From assembly GCA_002839825.1 (NCBI GenBank), contig PGYU01000001.1, positions 248,001-312,000 on the forward strand: DNA of 64,000 nucleotides, given 5' to 3'. This DNA is from Ignavibacteriae bacterium HGW-Ignavibacteriae-1 (GTDB taxonomy: Bacteria > Bacteroidota > Ignavibacteria > Kapaibacteriales > UBA2268). Of the stretch, positions 44,716-52,976 are shown one piece after another (within the stretch, counting starts at the first letter, position 1; the number at the start of each line of letters is the position of its first letter). The translations under genes were made by a program, and so were the position numbers. Under the pieces are notes generated by a model. That model was not told the origin of the DNA. It saw only the letters and a list, made by a program, of their open reading frames with translations, and did not search any database.

Positions 44716-47700
44716 ATGTGTTATAGTAGTATGAGTAAAATGAAAAATGTAATTAGATTGTCGCTTCTGTTTGTTATCGTTTCTTGCATTCCCGTCACCG
44801 CACATCCTTGGTATCACTTGGTTCCTAAGGATAGTGTTGACAGTTTCTATGCTGTTCAAAATGCCTATAACCAATATTGGAGTGATCAAGAGCAAAGCAA
44901 AGGCTCGGGTTGGAAACAATTCAAAAGATGGGAGCATTTTTGGGGTGAACGTGTTTATCCGAGTGGAATATTTCCCGATGCATATGATGTAATGACAAGT
45001 TATAGCCAATTCCTCGAAGGGCAAAAAGATAGAGACAATTTGCAAAAGACATATTTTTGGCGTGAGGAAGGTCCAAAAGAAGTGCCCGAAAATTTACTCA
45101 GCTACCAATCATCAGGCATTGGCAGGCTGAATGTGGTTCGGATGCACCCTACAAACAGCAATATAATTTTTGCAGGTTCTGCAAGTGGCGGGATTTGGAA
45201 AAGTACAGACAAAGGCGGGACTTGGGAATTACTTCAATTCTCAGATGTCTTATCACTCGGTATTAGCGATATTGCAATTTCCAATCAGAATCCTGATTTG
45301 ATATATGCCGCCACCGGTGATGACAATGGTCACTTTCAATCAAGAACTTACTCAATTGGTGTTTTGAAATCAACTGATGGTGGCAAAAGTTGGCTATCAG
45401 TAGGTCTGGATTATGAAATTCCACAAAGAGTCTTAGCGTCACGAATACTGATTCATCCCGAAGATGATAATATCGTCATTGTGGGTGGCTCAAACGGTAT
45501 TTTCAAAACAACTGACGGTGGTAATGAATGGGTGCGAGTGTATTCTGCCCGATTTGTCAAGCGTATGGAATTCAAACCCGATGACCCAAGTATAGTTTAT
45601 GCTGCAACGTCCGGATTTTATTCATCATTTTCAGAAGCGGAATTTTACAAGAGCACTGATGGTGGAGACACATGGGAATACATTCGTCGTTTCAATGGAG
45701 CTGTTAGATTAGAAATTGGCGTTACTCCACATGATGCTAATTATGTTTACTTGTTAGGTGCAAATAGTACTTATGGTGGTTTGCATGGGATATTCCGTTC
45801 AACAGATGCCGGAAGCACATTTGAACTTATGGCTAATACTCCTAATATTTTGAATATTAATGTTAATGGCGAAGGTAGTACAGGGCAGGGTTTTTATGAT
45901 TTGGCTCTTGCTGTTTCACCGGTTGATAAAGACCAATTGTATGTTGGTGGAATTCATATTTGGAAAAGTATGAATGGAGGAAAAAATTGGCAGTTACTAA
46001 ATCATTGGACCGGTTCAAATGGTCTGCCTTTCGTACATGCCGACCAACATAATTTAGTCATTAATCCGGAAACTTTAGATTTATTCTCTGCAAATGACGG
46101 TGGTTTGTATGTTTCGACCAATAACGGTTCTTCATGGAAAGATATTAGCTCCGGGCTTGGAATTACCCAATTATGGAGTATTGACGTTTCTCAAACCGAA
46201 CCCGGTTACATTGCATTAGGCACTCAAGATAATGGTTCGCATATTTTGAAAAACGGCAAATGGTATCATGTAAATGGTGGAGACGGTATGGTGCCTTTGA
46301 TTGATTCCGAGAGTCCACAATATCTATACACAAGTATGCAAAATGGAAATATCTATCGCTCGGTCAATGGTGGAAATTCCTTTAGCCGTATTCTTCATAC
46401 GGGTCGATTCACTAATGAAAGTTCTGCTTGGGTAGCACCATTTGTAATGAATCCATACAGTGGCCGAAGCCTTTATGTTGGATATCGAAATATATACAAA
46501 TCTGAAAATAGAGGTTCTAATTGGAGGAAAATTTCTTCAATTGATAGATACCCCCTAAATGTAATTGCAATTGCACCATCAGATACGAATGTGATTTATA
46601 CAGCAACTGCATCTGATTTATATGTTACCAAAGATGAAGGAAAATCGTGGAAAGTGCTTTTTTCGGCAAATGCTCAAATTAAAGGTATTGCTGTTGATAA
46701 CAAAAATCCGGAAAGACTTTGGGTTACACTAAGCGGATATTCTGACGGAAATAAAGTTTTTGAAATCAATGGCGACAAAGCTCAGAATATTTCATATAAT
46801 TTACCAAACGTTCCAGTAAATTCAATTATTTACCACAAAAATTCTGCACGTACTCTTTATATCGCTACTGATGTAGGAGTTATGGTGTTTGACCCATTTA
46901 GCTTAGAATGGCAAGTTCTAAATGTTGGTTTGCCACCTGTAGTTGTTAATGATTTGAAAATAAGTTATTTGGAAGGAAGAATTTTTGCAGGGACACATGG
47001 CAGAGGTGTATGGTCAACTCAGGTTTTTGATTGTAATACCGAAAAACCTGATTTTACATTCTCCGGACCACTCGCTTTTTGCCAAGGTCAAGATAGCGTA
47101 AAGTTAACGCTGCAAGGTGAACATTACGATTTTACTTGGTCAAATGGTGAAACAACGAGAACAATCTGGGCTAAGGAATCCGGCGCCTATTATGTAAATG
47201 TGCGGAATGCCGAAGGCTGTAGTGAACGTTCAGATTACATAACTGTCAATGTAACATCTGTTCCTGTGTTTGAAATTAAGCATAATGGCGCCGGAACAGG
47301 AGTTATATGCGGACAAAGTGAAATTAGCTTATATGCTAATTTTGGATTAAAAGATTATAAATGGTCAACCGGCGCAACATCGGCAAAAATTGAAGTTACA
47401 GAAGCCGGTGAATATTGGGTGACTGCGGTCACTCAAGAAGATTGCCCTGTAAAAGCAGGTCCTTTTATAGTTGCAAAAGCAGAATTCCCTGAAAAACCAT
47501 ACATCTTTTTTGACCAAAATTATCTTAAGTCAACTGAAGCCGTTTCATATAAATGGTATTTTAATGATGTATTCATTGAGAACTCAGATACGATTGCGAT
47601 TGAACTAACTAAAATCGGTAAATATGTGGTTGAAACCTTTAACGAGTACGGTTGCTCTTCAAAATCAGAAGCATTATTGATTGAAACGAGTGTTTATGAT

Positions 47701-47952
47701 GATGTAAATGGTCAATATATACAAATCATACCAAATCCTGCGCGAGATTTTGTCAATATCATACTATCACCGGAACTAAACGCAAAAGAGTTGATAATAT
47801 ATGATGCTATTGGAAGAGAGATTTTAAGAATTGAATCCGGCAATGAACTCAACCATTCCATAAACACAGGTAAATACCCCAACGGAGTGTATAAAATTGT
47901 GGTTAGTAGTTCCGACAAACAAATCGTCCAACAGCTAATAATTGCTAACTAA
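44716..47952 (+). CDS. Secreted BNR/sortilin-like beta-propeller protein with T9SS sorting domain
   Basis: A 1078-residue exported protein. The signal peptide follows a second or third Met (44731 or 44740; hydrophobic MKNVIRLSLLFVIVSC). Residues about 110-780 contain repeated BNR/Asp-box and VPS10/sortilin-like blades (GGIWKSTDKGGTWE, VLKSTDGGKSWLSV, YKSTDGGDTWEYI), i.e. a multi-blade propeller. Residues about 790-970 hold Ig-like modules with Y-x-W-S-x-G-x-T-x-x-I motifs and Cys pairs. The last roughly 75 residues are a type A T9SS signal (PNPARDFVNI...IYDAIGREI...YPNGVYKIVV). The next gene is a full-length paralogue. Function is unknown; adhesion or degradation of extracellular polymers is possible. 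Confidence 0.85.
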   Translation: MCYSSMSKMKNVIRLSLLFVIVSCIPVTAHPWYHLVPKDSVDSFYAVQNAYNQYWSDQEQSKGSGWKQFKRWEHFWGERVYPSGIFPDAYDVMTSYSQFLEGQKDRDNLQKTYFWREEGPKEVPENLLSYQSSGIGRLNVVRMHPTNSNIIFAGSASGGIWKSTDKGGTWELLQFSDVLSLGISDIAISNQNPDLIYAATGDDNGHFQSRTYSIGVLKSTDGGKSWLSVGLDYEIPQRVLASRILIHPEDDNIVIVGGSNGIFKTTDGGNEWVRVYSARFVKRMEFKPDDPSIVYAATSGFYSSFSEAEFYKSTDGGDTWEYIRRFNGAVRLEIGVTPHDANYVYLLGANSTYGGLHGIFRSTDAGSTFELMANTPNILNINVNGEGSTGQGFYDLALAVSPVDKDQLYVGGIHIWKSMNGGKNWQLLNHWTGSNGLPFVHADQHNLVINPETLDLFSANDGGLYVSTNNGSSWKDISSGLGITQLWSIDVSQTEPGYIALGTQDNGSHILKNGKWYHVNGGDGMVPLIDSESPQYLYTSMQNGNIYRSVNGGNSFSRILHTGRFTNESSAWVAPFVMNPYSGRSLYVGYRNIYKSENRGSNWRKISSIDRYPLNVIAIAPSDTNVIYTATASDLYVTKDEGKSWKVLFSANAQIKGIAVDNKNPERLWVTLSGYSDGNKVFEINGDKAQNISYNLPNVPVNSIIYHKNSARTLYIATDVGVMVFDPFSLEWQVLNVGLPPVVVNDLKISYLEGRIFAGTHGRGVWSTQVFDCNTEKPDFTFSGPLAFCQGQDSVKLTLQGEHYDFTWSNGETTRTIWAKESGAYYVNVRNAEGCSERSDYITVNVTSVPVFEIKHNGAGTGVICGQSEISLYANFGLKDYKWSTGATSAKIEVTEAGEYWVTAVTQEDCPVKAGPFIVAKAEFPEKPYIFFDQNYLKSTEAVSYKWYFNDVFIENSDTIAIELTKIGKYVVETFNEYGCSSKSEALLIETSVYDDVNGQYIQIIPNPARDFVNIILSPELNAKELIIYDAIGREILRIESGNELNHSINTGKYPNGVYKIVVSSSDKQIVQQLIIAN

Positions 47953-48335
47953 TGTGAAACTGAGAGTAGTTTATATTTTGCTTTTCCTGATGCCGATATG
48001 TATAAATGTATCGGCATTATTTTTTAATACTTTCGATACAGAAAAATTTGAAACTTGGATCTCGAAAACGACAAAGTAAGTTACGAAAATTCATATTTTT
48101 GATTTGTTGGAATAAATCTGCTATGGGAATGTAGATTATACATTCAAATAAGCTCAACACTATTATAAACAATGACTTACACGAATCTAATCAAGCACGT
48201 ATTGCATTATTTTTCTCTTACGTTCGTCAGAATAATATAAACTTTTATTAAATTTTTGTAACTTTTTGAGCATTTGAAGTGTCTATTAAGTATATGCATA
48301 TTGCAAACTTTGAATATTAAATATAATTGGTGCTT
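47953..48335. other. Intergenic region between the two BNR paralogues
   Basis: About 380 bases without a convincing gene. It holds a terminator hairpin near 47991-48026 and the TTGTAACTTTTT motif at 48257-48268. The rest is AT-rich with no RNA gene that I can recognise. Confidence 0.6.
47989..48026 (+). terminator. Intrinsic terminator after the first BNR gene
   Basis: TGCCGATA (47991-47998) / TATCGGCA (48009-48016) with a 10-base loop, followed by TTATTTTTT. It separates the two paralogous genes transcriptionally. Confidence 0.75.
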
Positions 48336-51300
48336 ATGAAAAACATTTTGATGGTTGCTGTCCTTCTGGCAGCTTTTTTTTCGGCTAATACCGCAGAATC
48401 CCAAAAAACATTCATAAATTTGAGTGACGGAAGCGAACTAAATTTTCACAAAATCGTACAAATGCAAGTTGAACATTGGGGCGACGCTCCAATATCAGAA
48501 CGAAAAGGATACAAACAATTTAAACGATGGGAACAATTTTGGCTTCCGCGAACTTTCCCTACAGGTAATTTCCCCGAAGGAACTGAAATATTCGAGGAAA
48601 TGAGAATTATTGATAATTATTCAAAAGACGACCCTTCGTTGATGAGTTCAGATTGGCAATCAGTTGGTCCATTTAACGAGCCAAATGCTTCTGACGAGCA
48701 ACGTGGTATCGGCAGAGTAAACGTGGTTAGACTTCACCCTCAAGATGAAAATGAAATTTGGATTGGTTCGGCTTCCGGTGGTTTGTGGCGTTCTAAAGAT
48801 GCCGGAGCCAATTGGGAAACTTTCCCTTTTACGCAATTCCTTTCTCTTGGTATATCCGATATTACATTTAGTAAATCTAATCCTGCAATCATTTACGTTA
48901 CAACAGGCGATGTATATGGTTCATCCGGCTCTCGCGATTTTTACAGTATTGGATTAATCAAAACTACTAATGGTGGCAATACTTGGGAGCTAACAAATTT
49001 ACGAAGAGAATTATCTGACCAAAAGCATGTATGTAAAGTGATTATTCATCCAAGCGACCCGAATAATCTAACTGTAGCAACTAGTGAAGGAATGTTCAAA
49101 TCATTCGATGGTGGCGATACTTGGGAATTGAAAAGTGACCCGGTGTTTTTCATTGATTTGAAAGCGAATCCCGAAAATCATGACATAATGTATGCTTCGA
49201 CATTTAGTATGGTTAATGGAGCGGGAAATATATATGTAACTGAAGATGGAGGTATGACTTGGACAAGCACTTTCAATGGTTCAAACATAGTAAGAATTGC
49301 CTTAGCGGTTACTCCGGCAGAACCAAATTTGGTTTATGCCTTGATAGCCAACAAAAATAATTTCGGTTTTCACTCTTTACTCGAATCCAAAGACGCAGGC
49401 AAAACTTGGGAAACAATTGCCAACCCAACATCTAATGGTAATATTCTTGGTTGGTATAATGGCACTCTTTCAAATGATTTCAGAGGGCAGGGACAATATG
49501 ATTTGTGTATTGCAGCCTCACCGTCAAATTCCAGGGAAGTCTATGTTGGTGGAATAAATATCTGGAAAAGCAACAACGGTGCAAGAAATTTCACAAAAAA
49601 CTCCCATTGGGTATCTTTAGACCCTAATTTCCCATATGTTCATGCAGATATTCATGAGCTTGTATTTAATGCAAATGGGTCTATTATTTATTCCGCTAAT
49701 GATGGTGGTATTTATCGCAGTACAAATGGCGGTGGTGTCTGGACAAGTATTTCAAACGGACTAAATATCACCCAATTTTATCGTATTGGAGTTTCGCAAA
49801 AAGATGTTTCTTTATCATTCTTAGCCGGAGCTCAAGATAACGGTACTAAAAGAGTGAAATTCAATCAATGGGCTAAAGTTCATGGGGGAGATGGTATGGA
49901 ATGTATTATTGACCCAGATGATAATTCAAGAGTTTATGCTTCTACATATAATGGTCAATTCCGTCGCTCACTCAATGGTGGTAATAGTTTCGCAAATATG
50001 TTATCCGAAAATTATACAAATGAAAAAGGGGCTTGGACAGCGCCGTTAATTTTAAACCCGCAAAATTCCGCAACAATATTTGCCGGTTACCAAAACGTAT
50101 GGGTGTCACGAAATTATGGAGCATCCGGTTCATGGTCTAAAATATCAGCGATTAATCCGGGTTCCAGCTTAATTGCACTTGCATGTGCACCATCAGATAC
50201 AAATGTTATATATGCTGCATCACTGACCAAAATTTTCGCTACATATAATAATGGTGCAAATTGGGAAGAAATTCATACTTCGGAAAGAGCTATAACTTAT
50301 CTTTGGGTTGACGAAAATGATGCTCGAAGGATTTGGGTCTCAAAATCGGGATATACAGATTATGATAAGGTTTACGAAATCAACGGCACTGAAGTAATAA
50401 ATATGTCAGGAAATTTGCCGAATTTGCCTATAAATTGCATTATCAAGCAAGAAGATTCCCCCGATAGACTTTATGTCGGTACAGATATAGGCGTCTTTTA
50501 CAGTGATTTTGGTTCTGCTAATTGGAAAAGATTCGGAAATGGTTTACCAAATGTTATAGTGAATGAATTAGAAATTCACAAGAATTCGAAGCGTTTAGTA
50601 GCCGCGACCTACGGCAGAGGCATCTGGGTTACAGACTTGATTGAATGCGACGGAATATCGCCCAATATCAAAGCAGATACCGACACTGAATTGTGCCCTG
50701 GAGAAACTGCAGTTTTGAGCATTGACGGACCGTATTCCGGTTACAAGTGGTCAACAGGTGAATCCACTCCATCAATTACTGTCAACAAAACAGGAGCATA
50801 TTCGATTTACATAGTCAGTCAAGACGCATGTGAAATCAAATCTAAGGCGATTTTTGTTAATGTCAGAGAAGTACCTGAATTAAATATTCAGAGTAATGGT
50901 AGTGATTTTATATGCGAAAATGGCGAAACACTTTTATTCGCGTCATCAGGATTTGAATCTTACCAATGGAGTAATGGTATGACCGATAGAAATATCACTA
51001 TTTCCGAACCGGGAGATTATTTCGTTGTTGGAACTACTATTTCAGGTTGTACCGAAACAAGCGAATCCATAACCATCGTTCAAAAACCTGCTCCTGCTAA
51101 ACCATTTATCAGTTTCCAAGGAAATACTTTAGTGGCATCTGAAGCTGATAGTTACCAATGGTATCTGAACGGCAAAAAATTAGTTTTTGAACGCAAACAG
51201 ACAATCCAATACAAACAAATTGGTGAATATCAAGTAGAAATAAGTGACGAATTTGGTTGTACAAACATCTCCGAACCATATTCAATTATCACAAGTGTAG

Positions 51301-51554
51301 AAGAGATTTCGGAAACAAGTGATATCACGATTTCTTCAAATTCCGAAAATGGATTATTTCAAGTTATGCTCTCAGAAACAGTAAACGATATTAAGGTTGA
51401 AGTTACTGATTATACCGGCAGAACATTGATACAGAATAATCACACAAACATAAACCGCTTTGAGATTGATTTGCAGAATTATCCTACATCTGTATATTTT
51501 GTCAAATTGACGATTGGCGGCAAATCATTTTACGAAAAATTGATAGTAAAATAA
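48336..51554 (+). CDS. Secreted BNR/sortilin-like paralogue with T9SS sorting domain
   Basis: A 1072-residue protein from the ATG at 48336 (a TTG three codons earlier is the only other option). The signal peptide is MKNILMVAVLLAAFFSANTAES. Its architecture is the same as the previous gene: an N-terminal KQFKRWEQFW segment found in both, BNR/VPS10 blades (GGLWRSKDAGANWETF, IKTTNGGNTWEL, ESKDAGKTWETI) to about 770, Ig-like W-S-x-G modules with Cys (about 780-960), and a T9SS-like end (VTDYTGRTLIQ...YPTSVYFVKLTIGG). Order, length and shared motifs show a tandem duplication, now clearly diverged. It ends at a strong terminator. The role is unknown. Confidence 0.85.
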   Translation: MKNILMVAVLLAAFFSANTAESQKTFINLSDGSELNFHKIVQMQVEHWGDAPISERKGYKQFKRWEQFWLPRTFPTGNFPEGTEIFEEMRIIDNYSKDDPSLMSSDWQSVGPFNEPNASDEQRGIGRVNVVRLHPQDENEIWIGSASGGLWRSKDAGANWETFPFTQFLSLGISDITFSKSNPAIIYVTTGDVYGSSGSRDFYSIGLIKTTNGGNTWELTNLRRELSDQKHVCKVIIHPSDPNNLTVATSEGMFKSFDGGDTWELKSDPVFFIDLKANPENHDIMYASTFSMVNGAGNIYVTEDGGMTWTSTFNGSNIVRIALAVTPAEPNLVYALIANKNNFGFHSLLESKDAGKTWETIANPTSNGNILGWYNGTLSNDFRGQGQYDLCIAASPSNSREVYVGGINIWKSNNGARNFTKNSHWVSLDPNFPYVHADIHELVFNANGSIIYSANDGGIYRSTNGGGVWTSISNGLNITQFYRIGVSQKDVSLSFLAGAQDNGTKRVKFNQWAKVHGGDGMECIIDPDDNSRVYASTYNGQFRRSLNGGNSFANMLSENYTNEKGAWTAPLILNPQNSATIFAGYQNVWVSRNYGASGSWSKISAINPGSSLIALACAPSDTNVIYAASLTKIFATYNNGANWEEIHTSERAITYLWVDENDARRIWVSKSGYTDYDKVYEINGTEVINMSGNLPNLPINCIIKQEDSPDRLYVGTDIGVFYSDFGSANWKRFGNGLPNVIVNELEIHKNSKRLVAATYGRGIWVTDLIECDGISPNIKADTDTELCPGETAVLSIDGPYSGYKWSTGESTPSITVNKTGAYSIYIVSQDACEIKSKAIFVNVREVPELNIQSNGSDFICENGETLLFASSGFESYQWSNGMTDRNITISEPGDYFVVGTTISGCTETSESITIVQKPAPAKPFISFQGNTLVASEADSYQWYLNGKKLVFERKQTIQYKQIGEYQVEISDEFGCTNISEPYSIITSVEEISETSDITISSNSENGLFQVMLSETVNDIKVEVTDYTGRTLIQNNHTNINRFEIDLQNYPTSVYFVKLTIGGKSFYEKLIVK

Positions 51555-51578: not shown

Positions 51579-51606
51579 ACCCCCACAGTAGTTGGGGGTT
51601 TTTTAT
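51579..51606 (+). terminator. Intrinsic terminator after the second BNR gene
   Basis: ACCCCCA (51579-51585) / TGGGGGT (51593-51599), 7-base loop, followed by TTTTTT (51599-51604). It lies directly before the ruvA promoter. Confidence 0.88.
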
Positions 51607-51633: not shown

Positions 51634-52236
51634 ATGATATATGCATTAGAAGGAAAATTATTCAACAAGACTTCAACCGAAGTTGTTGTGAATTGCAACG
51701 GAATTCACTATTTGGCAGGTATTTCGCTCAATACATTTGAAAAATTACCCGCTGCCGGCAATCCTGTATTCATTTTCACTTATCACCAAACCCGAGAAGA
51801 CGGAACCTTTTTGTTCGGCTTTTCGGATGTTAATGAATTGGAATTGTTCAAATTGCTAATCTCTATTTCGGGAATTGGTCCCAAAAGTGCACTCGGTATT
51901 TTGTCTTCAGTTACTCCTGATGATTTCCATGATATACTGTTATCCAAAGATTTGAACAGATTAACCAAGTTTCCGGGAATCGGCAAAAAAACAGCCGAAC
52001 GAATCTTATTCGAACTCGGTGACAAATCCTTGGCAATAATTGCTAAATTCAGCAAATCCGACAGAAAAATCGGTCTTTCGTCAAATGTGGATGACGCCAT
52101 AGCAGCACTTACATCATTGGGATACAATCACGCAGTAGCCGAGAAATCTGTTAAAGCTGTAATCCGAGACGGCGATAGTCAGAATCTGACCACTGAAGAT
52201 ATTATCAAACTTGCCTTAAAATTTCAAATGAGATAG
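51634..52236 (+). CDS. ruvA: Holliday junction DNA helicase subunit RuvA
   Basis: Holliday-junction-binding subunit of the RuvAB branch-migration motor; 200 residues, typical. The N-terminal OB domain (MIYALEGKLFNKTSTEVVVNC to FGFSD) is followed by two helix-hairpin-helix motifs (ISGIGPKSALGIL; FPGIGKKTAERIL) and a C-terminal RuvB-binding three-helix domain (VDDAIAALTSLGYNHAVAEKSV). No ruvB or ruvC is adjacent. The HisA-like gene begins 2 bases after the stop, so the two are probably co-transcribed. Confidence 0.97.
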   Translation: MIYALEGKLFNKTSTEVVVNCNGIHYLAGISLNTFEKLPAAGNPVFIFTYHQTREDGTFLFGFSDVNELELFKLLISISGIGPKSALGILSSVTPDDFHDILLSKDLNRLTKFPGIGKKTAERILFELGDKSLAIIAKFSKSDRKIGLSSNVDDAIAALTSLGYNHAVAEKSVKAVIRDGDSQNLTTEDIIKLALKFQMR

Positions 52237-52238
52237 CC

Positions 52239-52976
52239 ATGTTATTAGTAATACCTGCGATAGAGATGAGAAATGGAACTTGCTTTGGCTGCATCGAAGG
52301 CGAAGCAGGCACTTTTGACTATTATCAAGAATTGTTCGAAAACCCATTGCTCTTAGTCAAACTGATGAGAGAAGAGAATTCCAAGGCACTCCATGTTTAT
52401 GATTATGATTCATTTCATACCGACGACAGCTCTGCAAATCTCAAGTCAATTCTGAACTTAAGCCAAAACTTCGATATTCCGATTCAACTTCACACCAAAT
52501 ACATTGATACAGCTCACAGCAAGATGCTGCTTGATAGTGGAATTTATCGTCTCATTATAAATGAACTGAATCATGAAAACTTACAATCAGTAGCGAGTTT
52601 ATTGAAATCCTATTCGCCATCAAGAATCGTTTTTTGGTGCGAACTTGACCAACAAAACCAATTATTGAGCAAAAGTGGGAGAGACTTAGATGAATGTCTG
52701 AAGCAAATTCAGAGTATTGGGGGCAAAAGAATTGTTGTCAAATATTCTGATAGGATGTTTGACGATTCTCGTTACGAATTTACAAAAACATTATATAGTA
52801 ATTACCACTTGAAAATATCGCTCTACGAGGGAGTTTATGACTATCAAGAGTTGATAATGCTCAATAAGGAAACCTCAAGTGGCATAGATTCTGTGATTAT
52901 GTCGGAATCTCTTTTCCAAAATTGTTTCCCTTGTCAGAAAATTTGGAGATTAGCAGAATCAAAATTGATGAACTAA
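52239..52976 (+). CDS. HisA-fold (TIM-barrel) protein with lost active site
   Basis: A 245-residue protein whose start (LLVIPAIEMRNGTCFGCIEGEAG), NPLLLVKLM...ALHVYDYDSF and PIQLHTKYID segments align by eye with HisA (phosphoribosylformimino-AICAR-P isomerase). Key residues differ. The first catalytic Asp of PALDL is Glu9. The first phosphate loop, normally GGGxR, is HTKYID (residues 83-88), and the second, normally GGI, is YEGVYD (194-199). It therefore probably cannot bind the bis-phosphorylated HisA substrate. It may be a repurposed barrel or a relic kept for another role. It is tightly linked to ruvA (2-base gap), and no his operon is present. Confidence 0.6.
   Translation: MLLVIPAIEMRNGTCFGCIEGEAGTFDYYQELFENPLLLVKLMREENSKALHVYDYDSFHTDDSSANLKSILNLSQNFDIPIQLHTKYIDTAHSKMLLDSGIYRLIINELNHENLQSVASLLKSYSPSRIVFWCELDQQNQLLSKSGRDLDECLKQIQSIGGKRIVVKYSDRMFDDSRYEFTKTLYSNYHLKISLYEGVYDYQELIMLNKETSSGIDSVIMSESLFQNCFPCQKIWRLAESKLMN

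What the first reader, a model, noticed from the sequence alone, without database searches (positions are those of the whole stretch)
52239..52976. HisA-fold protein with both phosphate loops lost, coupled to ruvA
The N-terminus and strand order follow HisA, but the catalytic Asp is Glu9 and the two Gly-rich phosphate loops have become HTKYID and YEGVYD. A full-length, undamaged frame placed 2 bases after ruvA argues for a kept, new function rather than decay. No other his gene is near.
Basis: partly seen in the sequence, partly recalled or inferred. Interest (0 to 1): 0.52.

Follow-up and report, generated by a model that had tools for sequence, protein, structure and literature searches.

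The report
Dead histidine enzyme kept by bacteria
A bacterium that appears unable to make histidine still keeps one histidine-pathway enzyme whose active site is gone but whose other side is strictly preserved across its relatives, which suggests the protein now does a different, probably non-catalytic job.

Summary
Window 52239-52976 encodes an intact 245-aa HisA-type TIM barrel (AF2 pTM 0.84; best PDB matches all HisA/PriA/HisF), 2 bases after ruvA. Both phosphate loops are replaced and three active-site Asp positions read Glu9, Glu135, Met173. It is the genome's only HisA-type gene; HisF, HisD, TrpF and TrpC were not found. It is under purifying selection (dN/dS 0.13-0.14). It belongs to a class-wide set: 240 of 294 sampled genomes of its class carry this HisA type and 145 of those lack hisD; outside the class 48 of 49 tested carriers have hisD. 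In a 34-row clade that includes the window no sequence keeps all three Asp, and different lineages lost different ones, while R44, E46, N228, F230, C232, W236, R237 and E240 are invariant in all 70 class sequences. ruvA adjacency recurs in 36 of 42 loci of its order but in 0 of 20 elsewhere in the class, so it is a later arrangement. Most likely: a HisA-derived pseudoenzyme kept for a non-catalytic binding role, partner unknown.

The parts
52239..52976 (+). HisA-derived TIM-barrel protein, 245 aa, probable pseudoenzyme
   Evidence: dN/dS
51634..52236 (+). ruvA, upstream partner gene of the pair
   Evidence: TIGR00084 183.5 bits; adjacency in 36 of 42 own-order loci
51579..51599 (+). terminator-like hairpin upstream of ruvA, suggesting that ruvA and the HisA-like gene start a transcription unit
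   Evidence: 1 found, shuffles mean 0.9, so statistically weak
52263..52265 (+). Glu9 codon, Asp in ordinary HisA (beta1)
52374..52376 (+). Glu46 codon, invariant in 70 of 70 class sequences, Gln in 12 of 13 ordinary HisA of the phylum
52491..52508 (+). HTKYID, replaced first phosphate loop (GGGIRS in ordinary HisA)
52641..52643 (+). Glu135 codon, Asp in ordinary HisA (beta5)
52755..52757 (+). Met173 codon, in ordinary HisA the Asp of the R-D-G motif after beta6
   Evidence: catalytic Asp (D176 SeHisA, D175 MtPriA) in PMC9088769, passage; that it is this R-D-G Asp is recalled
52824..52841 (+). YEGVYD, replaced second phosphate loop (SGGVSG in ordinary HisA)
52920..52958 (+). NCFPCQKIWRLAE, C-terminal motif (residues 228-240); N228, F230, C232, W236, R237 and E240 invariant in 70 of 70 class sequences, Q233 in 69 of 70

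Best explanation
It is a HisA-derived pseudoenzyme. Shown: an ordinary HisA of the Chlorobi-Rhodothermota type, marked by a C-terminal FPCQ-x-x-W motif, is the closest relative; in this class the gene was kept where hisD is absent; its catalytic Asp set is broken in every member of a 34-row clade, at different residues in different lineages; selection still acts on the window gene; and a separate residue set (R44, E46, N47, R104, R164, D217, S218, N228, F230, C232, Q233, W236, R237, E240) is nearly or fully invariant. Inferred: the protein no longer isomerises ProFAR or PRA; it works by binding, through the side of the barrel formed by the end of helix 1 and helix 8, either another protein or itself, with the old active-site mouth no longer needed in the window's family. 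In the window's order the gene came to lie behind ruvA and is probably co-translated with it; this gives housekeeping-level expression rather than naming the partner.
For: Only HisA-type gene, no HisF or HisD, no TrpF or TrpC. dN/dS 0.139 and 0.126 against G002 and G001, with ruvA 0.041 and 0.035. Class sample: type present at E<=1e-40 in 240 of 294 genomes, 95 with hisD and 145 without (hand tally); outside the class 48 of 49 tested carriers have hisD. All three of Asp 9/135/173: 13 of 13 phylum HisA, 3 of 27 class copies, 0 of 43 own order. Mean pairwise identity at 13 active-site positions against 14 other positions: phylum HisA 0.94 / 0.83, class 0.58 / 0.995, own order outside f1 0.58 / 1.00, window's family f1 0.20 / 0.97 (sites chosen after seeing the alignment). 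E46, N228, R237, E240 invariant in 70 of 70 but variable in phylum HisA. Tree without active-site columns: 34-row clade 87/90, with the own order plus f13 at 100/99 inside it.
Against: No partner, ligand or phenotype is known. A new catalytic activity is not excluded: own-order proteins outside f1 share Arg135 (15 of 18), Trp172 (15 of 18), Glu173 (17 of 18) and keep the second phosphate loop (18 of 18), which looks like a ligand site. Asp-to-Glu at position 9 alone need not kill catalysis. Parsimony needs only 2 changes for the whole-triad label, so the count of independent losses rests on single residues (9: 8 changes; 135: 3; 173: 4). One phylum HisA from a hisD-bearing genome (L128, G319) already has E46, N228, R237 and E240, so that set is older than the loss of the pathway. 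The gene has no match in 14 of 62 own-order genomes sampled, so it is dispensable in some lineages. No coordinates were available, so the spatial cluster is inferred from secondary-structure order only.
Confidence: 0.57

Rival explanations
1. Neofunctionalised enzyme: the HisA barrel took a new, smaller substrate with one phosphate, using the second phosphate loop and new residues R135, W172, E173; the window's family went further and changed the substrate again.
For: In own-order copies outside f1, loop 2 GG is kept in 18 of 18, R135 in 15 of 18, W172 in 15 of 18, E173 in 17 of 18. HisA relatives AglZ/HisF2 and PriA-derived AdeK show that the fold is easily recruited.
Against: In f1 (the window) these residues are not kept: mean identity at active-site positions 0.20, below the 0.34 mean of all positions. 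No constant gene neighbourhood of a pathway.
Confidence: 0.24
2. RuvA accessory factor: the protein binds RuvA or the RuvAB complex and the gene pair is a functional module of recombination.
For: ruvA is the upstream neighbour in 36 of 42 own-order loci, often with 0 to 5 nt between the genes, and the pair stays together while its flanks differ.
Against: The same invariant residues occur in class copies that are not next to ruvA (0 of 20) and in f9 of the same order (4 of 4 away from ruvA). nuoGHI also stay downstream in many loci, so position alone may be inherited.
Confidence: 0.1
3. Relic in slow decay after loss of the histidine pathway.
For: Active site gone; the window's lineage is fast (end branch 1.5); 14 of 62 order members have no match.
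Against: dN/dS 0.13-0.14; open full-length frames in the family; 13 positions invariant in all 42 own-order rows.
Confidence: 0.05
4. PriA-like or TrpF-like isomerase kept for tryptophan synthesis, as in Actinomycetota.
For: Precedent of PriA retained after gene loss (PMC5404923, passages); best PDB matches include PriA and subHisA.
Against: No TrpF and no TrpC in the genome; catalytic Asp and both phosphate loops lost.
Confidence: 0.02

Closest known systems
HisA, ProFAR isomerase (TIGR00007, PF00977), Chlorobi-Rhodothermota type with an extra C-terminal peptide (PMC8305728, passages)
   Same: Fold, full-length alignment, C-terminal FPCQ-x-x-W motif, R44, R104, R164, D217
   Different: Three active-site Asp and both phosphate loops lost; far under the TIGR00007 cut-off (57.9 against 228.95); no HisF or HisD in the genome
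PriA / SubHisA2 / SubTrpF retained after gene loss in Actinomycetaceae (PMC5404923, start of abstract and passages)
   Same: HisA-fold enzyme kept and changing after loss of his and trp genes
   Different: There the retained enzymes tested kept HisA or TrpF activity; here trp genes are also absent and catalytic residues are gone, while another face is invariant
AglZ/HisF2 family acetamidino modification protein (NF038364)
   Same: HisA/HisF-fold protein recruited outside histidine synthesis
   Different: Window scores 16.6 bits against a cut-off of 310
AdeK, PriA copy recruited into nucleoside antibiotic clusters (PMC13055916, passages)
   Same: Expansion of a HisA-fold enzyme into another role
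   Different: AdeK kept HisA activity according to the paper; the window gene follows ruvA and precedes nuo-like genes

Membership tests
HisA (TIGR00007) | score above the curated cut-off 228.95 bits | tested here: not met
   57.9 bits
HisA (TIGR00007) | beta-alpha-8 barrel of HisA type | tested here: met
   AF2 pTM 0.84, Z 23.9 to 4wd0
HisA (TIGR00007) | active-site Asp at beta1, beta5 and after beta6 | tested here: not met
   E9, E135, M173; D in 13 of 13 phylum HisA
HisA (TIGR00007) | two Gly-rich phosphate loops | tested here: not met
   HTKYID and YEGVYD
HisA (TIGR00007) | rest of the histidine pathway in the genome | tested here: not met
   no HisF, no HisD
PriA/TrpF-type isomerase | tryptophan pathway lacking its own TrpF | tested here: not met
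   no TrpF and no TrpC in G000
PriA/TrpF-type isomerase | PRA isomerase activity | not testable with these tools
   needs assay or complementation
AglZ/HisF2 | score above cut-off 310 | tested here: not met
   16.6 bits
Pseudoenzyme derived from HisA | catalytic residues lost while the protein is under purifying selection | tested here: met
Pseudoenzyme derived from HisA | no catalytic activity | not testable with these tools
   needs assay

The most novel reading that the evidence does not exclude
In one bacterial class, HisA acquired a second, non-catalytic job before the histidine pathway was lost. After the loss the enzyme was kept for that job alone in much of the class; catalysis then broke at different residues in different lineages, while a binding face made of the end of helix 1 and helix 8 was frozen. 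This would be a class-wide family of HisA pseudoenzymes with an unknown, probably widely conserved partner.
Probability: 0.45. Interest if true: 0.68.

Novelty: new variant of a known kind. Interest (0 to 1): 0.52.

Why it matters
HisA is a textbook model for enzyme evolution and bifunctionality. A natural series from working HisA to active-site-free descendants, kept without hisD in 145 of 240 sampled carriers of the class, makes it possible to test whether metabolic enzymes carry hidden non-catalytic functions. It also warns that automatic annotation can report a histidine-pathway gene in organisms that lack the pathway.

Tried and rejected
PriA/TrpF replacement: rejected because TrpF and TrpC are absent in the genome. 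Only hisA of a histidine-making organism: rejected, HisF and HisD absent; the second PF00977 hit is a 43-position stretch inside a 508-aa frame, not examined further. AglZ/HisF2: rejected by score. Decay: disfavoured by dN/dS. A constant functional neighbour in the class: not found; next to the gene in other families lie a roughly 755-aa propeller-like protein, a nucleotidyltransferase-like protein, a glycosyltransferase-like protein and others (these names are recalled from the look of the sequence, no family search was run on them). Paper searches: hisA+ruvA+Ignavibacteria gave 0 papers, HisA+pseudoenzyme+TIM barrel gave 0, Kapabacteria+histidine+amino acid biosynthesis gave 0, Ignavibacteria+histidine biosynthesis+auxotroph gave 1, unrelated by title. 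I did not find this family described in those searches or in the listings; the library is open-access only.

A family-wide count of independent losses is not firm: the whole-triad label needs only 2 changes on the tree. The 13 plus 14 positions compared were picked after seeing the alignment, so those means describe rather than test.

Full report
What is there. The ORF at 52239-52976 (+) is intact, 245 aa, and starts 2 bases after the stop of ruvA (51634-52236). It matches PF00977 over its whole length (E 3e-15) but scores 57.9 bits against the TIGR00007 HisA cut-off of 228.95. An AlphaFold2 model from a five-row alignment has pLDDT 84.5 and pTM 0.84. Its nearest solved structures are HisA, PriA and HisF (best 4wd0, Z 23.9, rmsd 2.3 over 214 residues; the 50 rows shown run down to Z 21.7).

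The active site. Against ordinary HisA of the same phylum, HTKYID stands where GGGIRS is and YEGVYD where SGGVSG is. Glu9 replaces the beta1 Asp, Glu135 the beta5 Asp and Met173 the Asp of the R-D-G motif. PMC9088769 (one passage) names D176 of S. enterica HisA as the catalytic aspartate and W145 as the residue that stacks on ProFAR; that D176 is the R-D-G Asp is recalled. A Trp column that is W in 13 of 13 phylum HisA, which I take to be that stacking Trp, is W in 0 of 43 own-order sequences. ProFAR isomerisation by this protein is therefore very unlikely (inference).

The genome. In the 3.23 Mb, 98.8%-complete assembly this is the only HisA/HisF-type gene apart from a 43-position stretch inside a 508-aa frame. 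HisD, TrpF and TrpC are not found; the same searches rang in 13 or 14 of 14 control genomes. So the protein serves neither histidine synthesis through HisF/HisD nor tryptophan synthesis through TrpC.

Selection. Between the window gene and its two same-genus relatives (87 and 80% identical) dN/dS is 0.139 and 0.126; for the neighbouring ruvA it is 0.041 and 0.035. The gene is constrained, though less than ruvA.

The family. A profile of 39 order members (A1) was run over 294 genomes of the class: 269 match at E <= 1e-10. With a stricter line at 1e-40, which sets aside 29 genomes with weaker hits, among them ordinary HisA of another type in family f7, 240 remain. hisD was found in 111 of the 294; 95 of these are among the 240, so 145 genomes keep this protein without a hisD match. 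In the own order 41 of 62 sampled genomes have it, 2 of them with hisD (G044, G117); 6 genomes of f7 match only weakly, 14 have no match and 1 (G026) is weak. Over the phylum sample 172 of 296 genomes match at 1e-38. I tested 49 of the out-of-class carriers for hisD (all 45 outside family f37, and 4 of f37): 48 have a match, 47 of them over the family's cut-off. Outside the class the type is thus the working HisA; inside the class it is mostly an orphan.

Pattern of constraint. I compared 13 phylum HisA (12 and L036), 27 class copies and 43 own-order copies. All three active-site Asp are present in 13 of 13, 3 of 27 and 0 of 43. The three class copies with an intact set (L108, L112, L116) all lie next to a second HisA/HisF-type gene and come from hisD-bearing genomes. 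In other class families a different Asp is broken: D173 to Val in f15 and f22, D173 to Asn in f18, f20 and f28, D9 to Glu in f21 and f25, D9 to Arg with D135 to Ser in f29, D135 in f13 and (with one exception, L029) in the own order. Four positions that vary in phylum HisA (46, 228, 237, 240) are E, N, R and E in all 70 class and own-order sequences, beside R44, F230, C232, W236, R164, L205 and S218. In the window's family the active-site positions have a mean pairwise identity of 0.20, below the 0.34 average of the protein, while the other set stays at 0.97. Results that temper this: one ordinary HisA outside the class (L128, f32) already carries the four residues, so they did not arise with the loss of the pathway, and the two site sets were chosen by looking.

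History. In a tree built without the active-site columns (57 rows, rooted on f7/f10 HisA) phylum HisA form one group (95/89), the three intact class copies together with f12 form another (83/85), and all others, 21 class and 13 own-order rows, form a clade (87/90) in which no row has the full Asp set. f13 is sister to the own order (100/99) and shares the loss of loop 1. A larger tree (72 rows) likewise puts the own order together (93/88) with f13 as its sister. Deep support is moderate. By parsimony the triad label changes twice, position 9 eight times, 135 three times, 173 four times. So either one early loss was followed by reshuffling of residues, or, more simply read, different lineages lost different residues; I lean to the second.

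The ruvA link. ruvA lies directly upstream on the same strand in 36 of 42 own-order loci (longest-ORF distances up to 145 nt, some negative because ORF starts were taken too far upstream). Exceptions are four f9 genomes, G024 and G011 (ruvA 0.86 kb away on the other strand). No ruvA was found in 0 of 20 class-level loci fetched (that is, none of the 20 has it within the fetched flanks), nor in the Rhodothermia locus L036. In up to 20 own-order loci nuoG, H and I homologues follow (names by the look of the sequence), and in others the pair stands between different flanks. The link is old in the order and probably gives co-translation, but the constraint on the protein is older than the link.

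Known context. PMC8305728 (passages) reports that HisA of Chlorobi and Rhodothermota has an extra C-terminal peptide, and that Ignavibacterium album and Melioribacter roseus have a shorter HisA in a compact his operon probably gained by transfer. This fits the f7/f10 type seen here. The passages and listings that I saw do not describe retained HisA without the pathway in this group. The nearest precedent is PriA in Actinomycetaceae (PMC5404923, passages), where the retained enzymes tested keep HisA or TrpF activity. Titles of matching public contigs (Ignavibacteria bacterium UBA7675, a Bacteroidetes bacterium, a record named Desulfobulbaceae) suggest an Ignavibacteria-like class; this is an inference.

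Mechanism. My best reading is a HisA-derived protein that works by binding, not catalysis, through the side of the barrel that holds the end of helix 1 (R44, E46, N47) and helix 8 (C232, Q233, W236, R237, E240). E46-R237 and R44-E240 could be salt bridges or contacts to a partner; no coordinates were available to check this. The strongest rival is a new enzyme using the remaining phosphate loop, which fits copies outside the window's family better than the window itself.

Noticed in passing
L033 (JAGXRP010000033.1, 391961 bases) and G001:C33 (391961 bases): A contig deposited under the name Desulfobulbaceae bacterium has the same length as a contig of the same-genus genome G001 and encodes an 80%-identical copy; the MAG is probably misnamed or mixed.
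   Followed up: partly
window 44716-47952 and 48327-51554: Two adjacent long, similar genes (1078 and 1075 aa) with repeats and a C-terminal region like a secretion sorting domain (recalled, no family search), upstream of ruvA; homologues lie near the pair in 14 of the order loci.
   Followed up: partly
L007, L008, L009 (G014, G023, G001): AglZ/HisF2-type genes in three genomes of the window's family that lack hisD: another HisF-fold protein outside histidine synthesis.
   Followed up: partly
L113, L114, L120, L115, L121: In families f15 and f22 the retained HisA-like gene lies beside or near a propeller-like protein of up to about 770 aa; seen in 5 of 5 fetched loci of these families with flanks.
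   Followed up: no
L110, L142, L146 (f12): f12 copies have Glu at both position 9 and position 135 with intact phosphate loops, two of three in genomes without a hisD match: a separate route of active-site change.
   Followed up: no
own order, families f4 and f5 and genera g3, g4, g9 of f1: Sampled members of these lineages have no match to the HisA-like profile; comparing their gene content with carriers could point to the partner.
   Followed up: no
G026 (f1, g25): Genome rated 100% complete with only a weak match (3.3e-17); may be an extreme form of the family.
   Followed up: no
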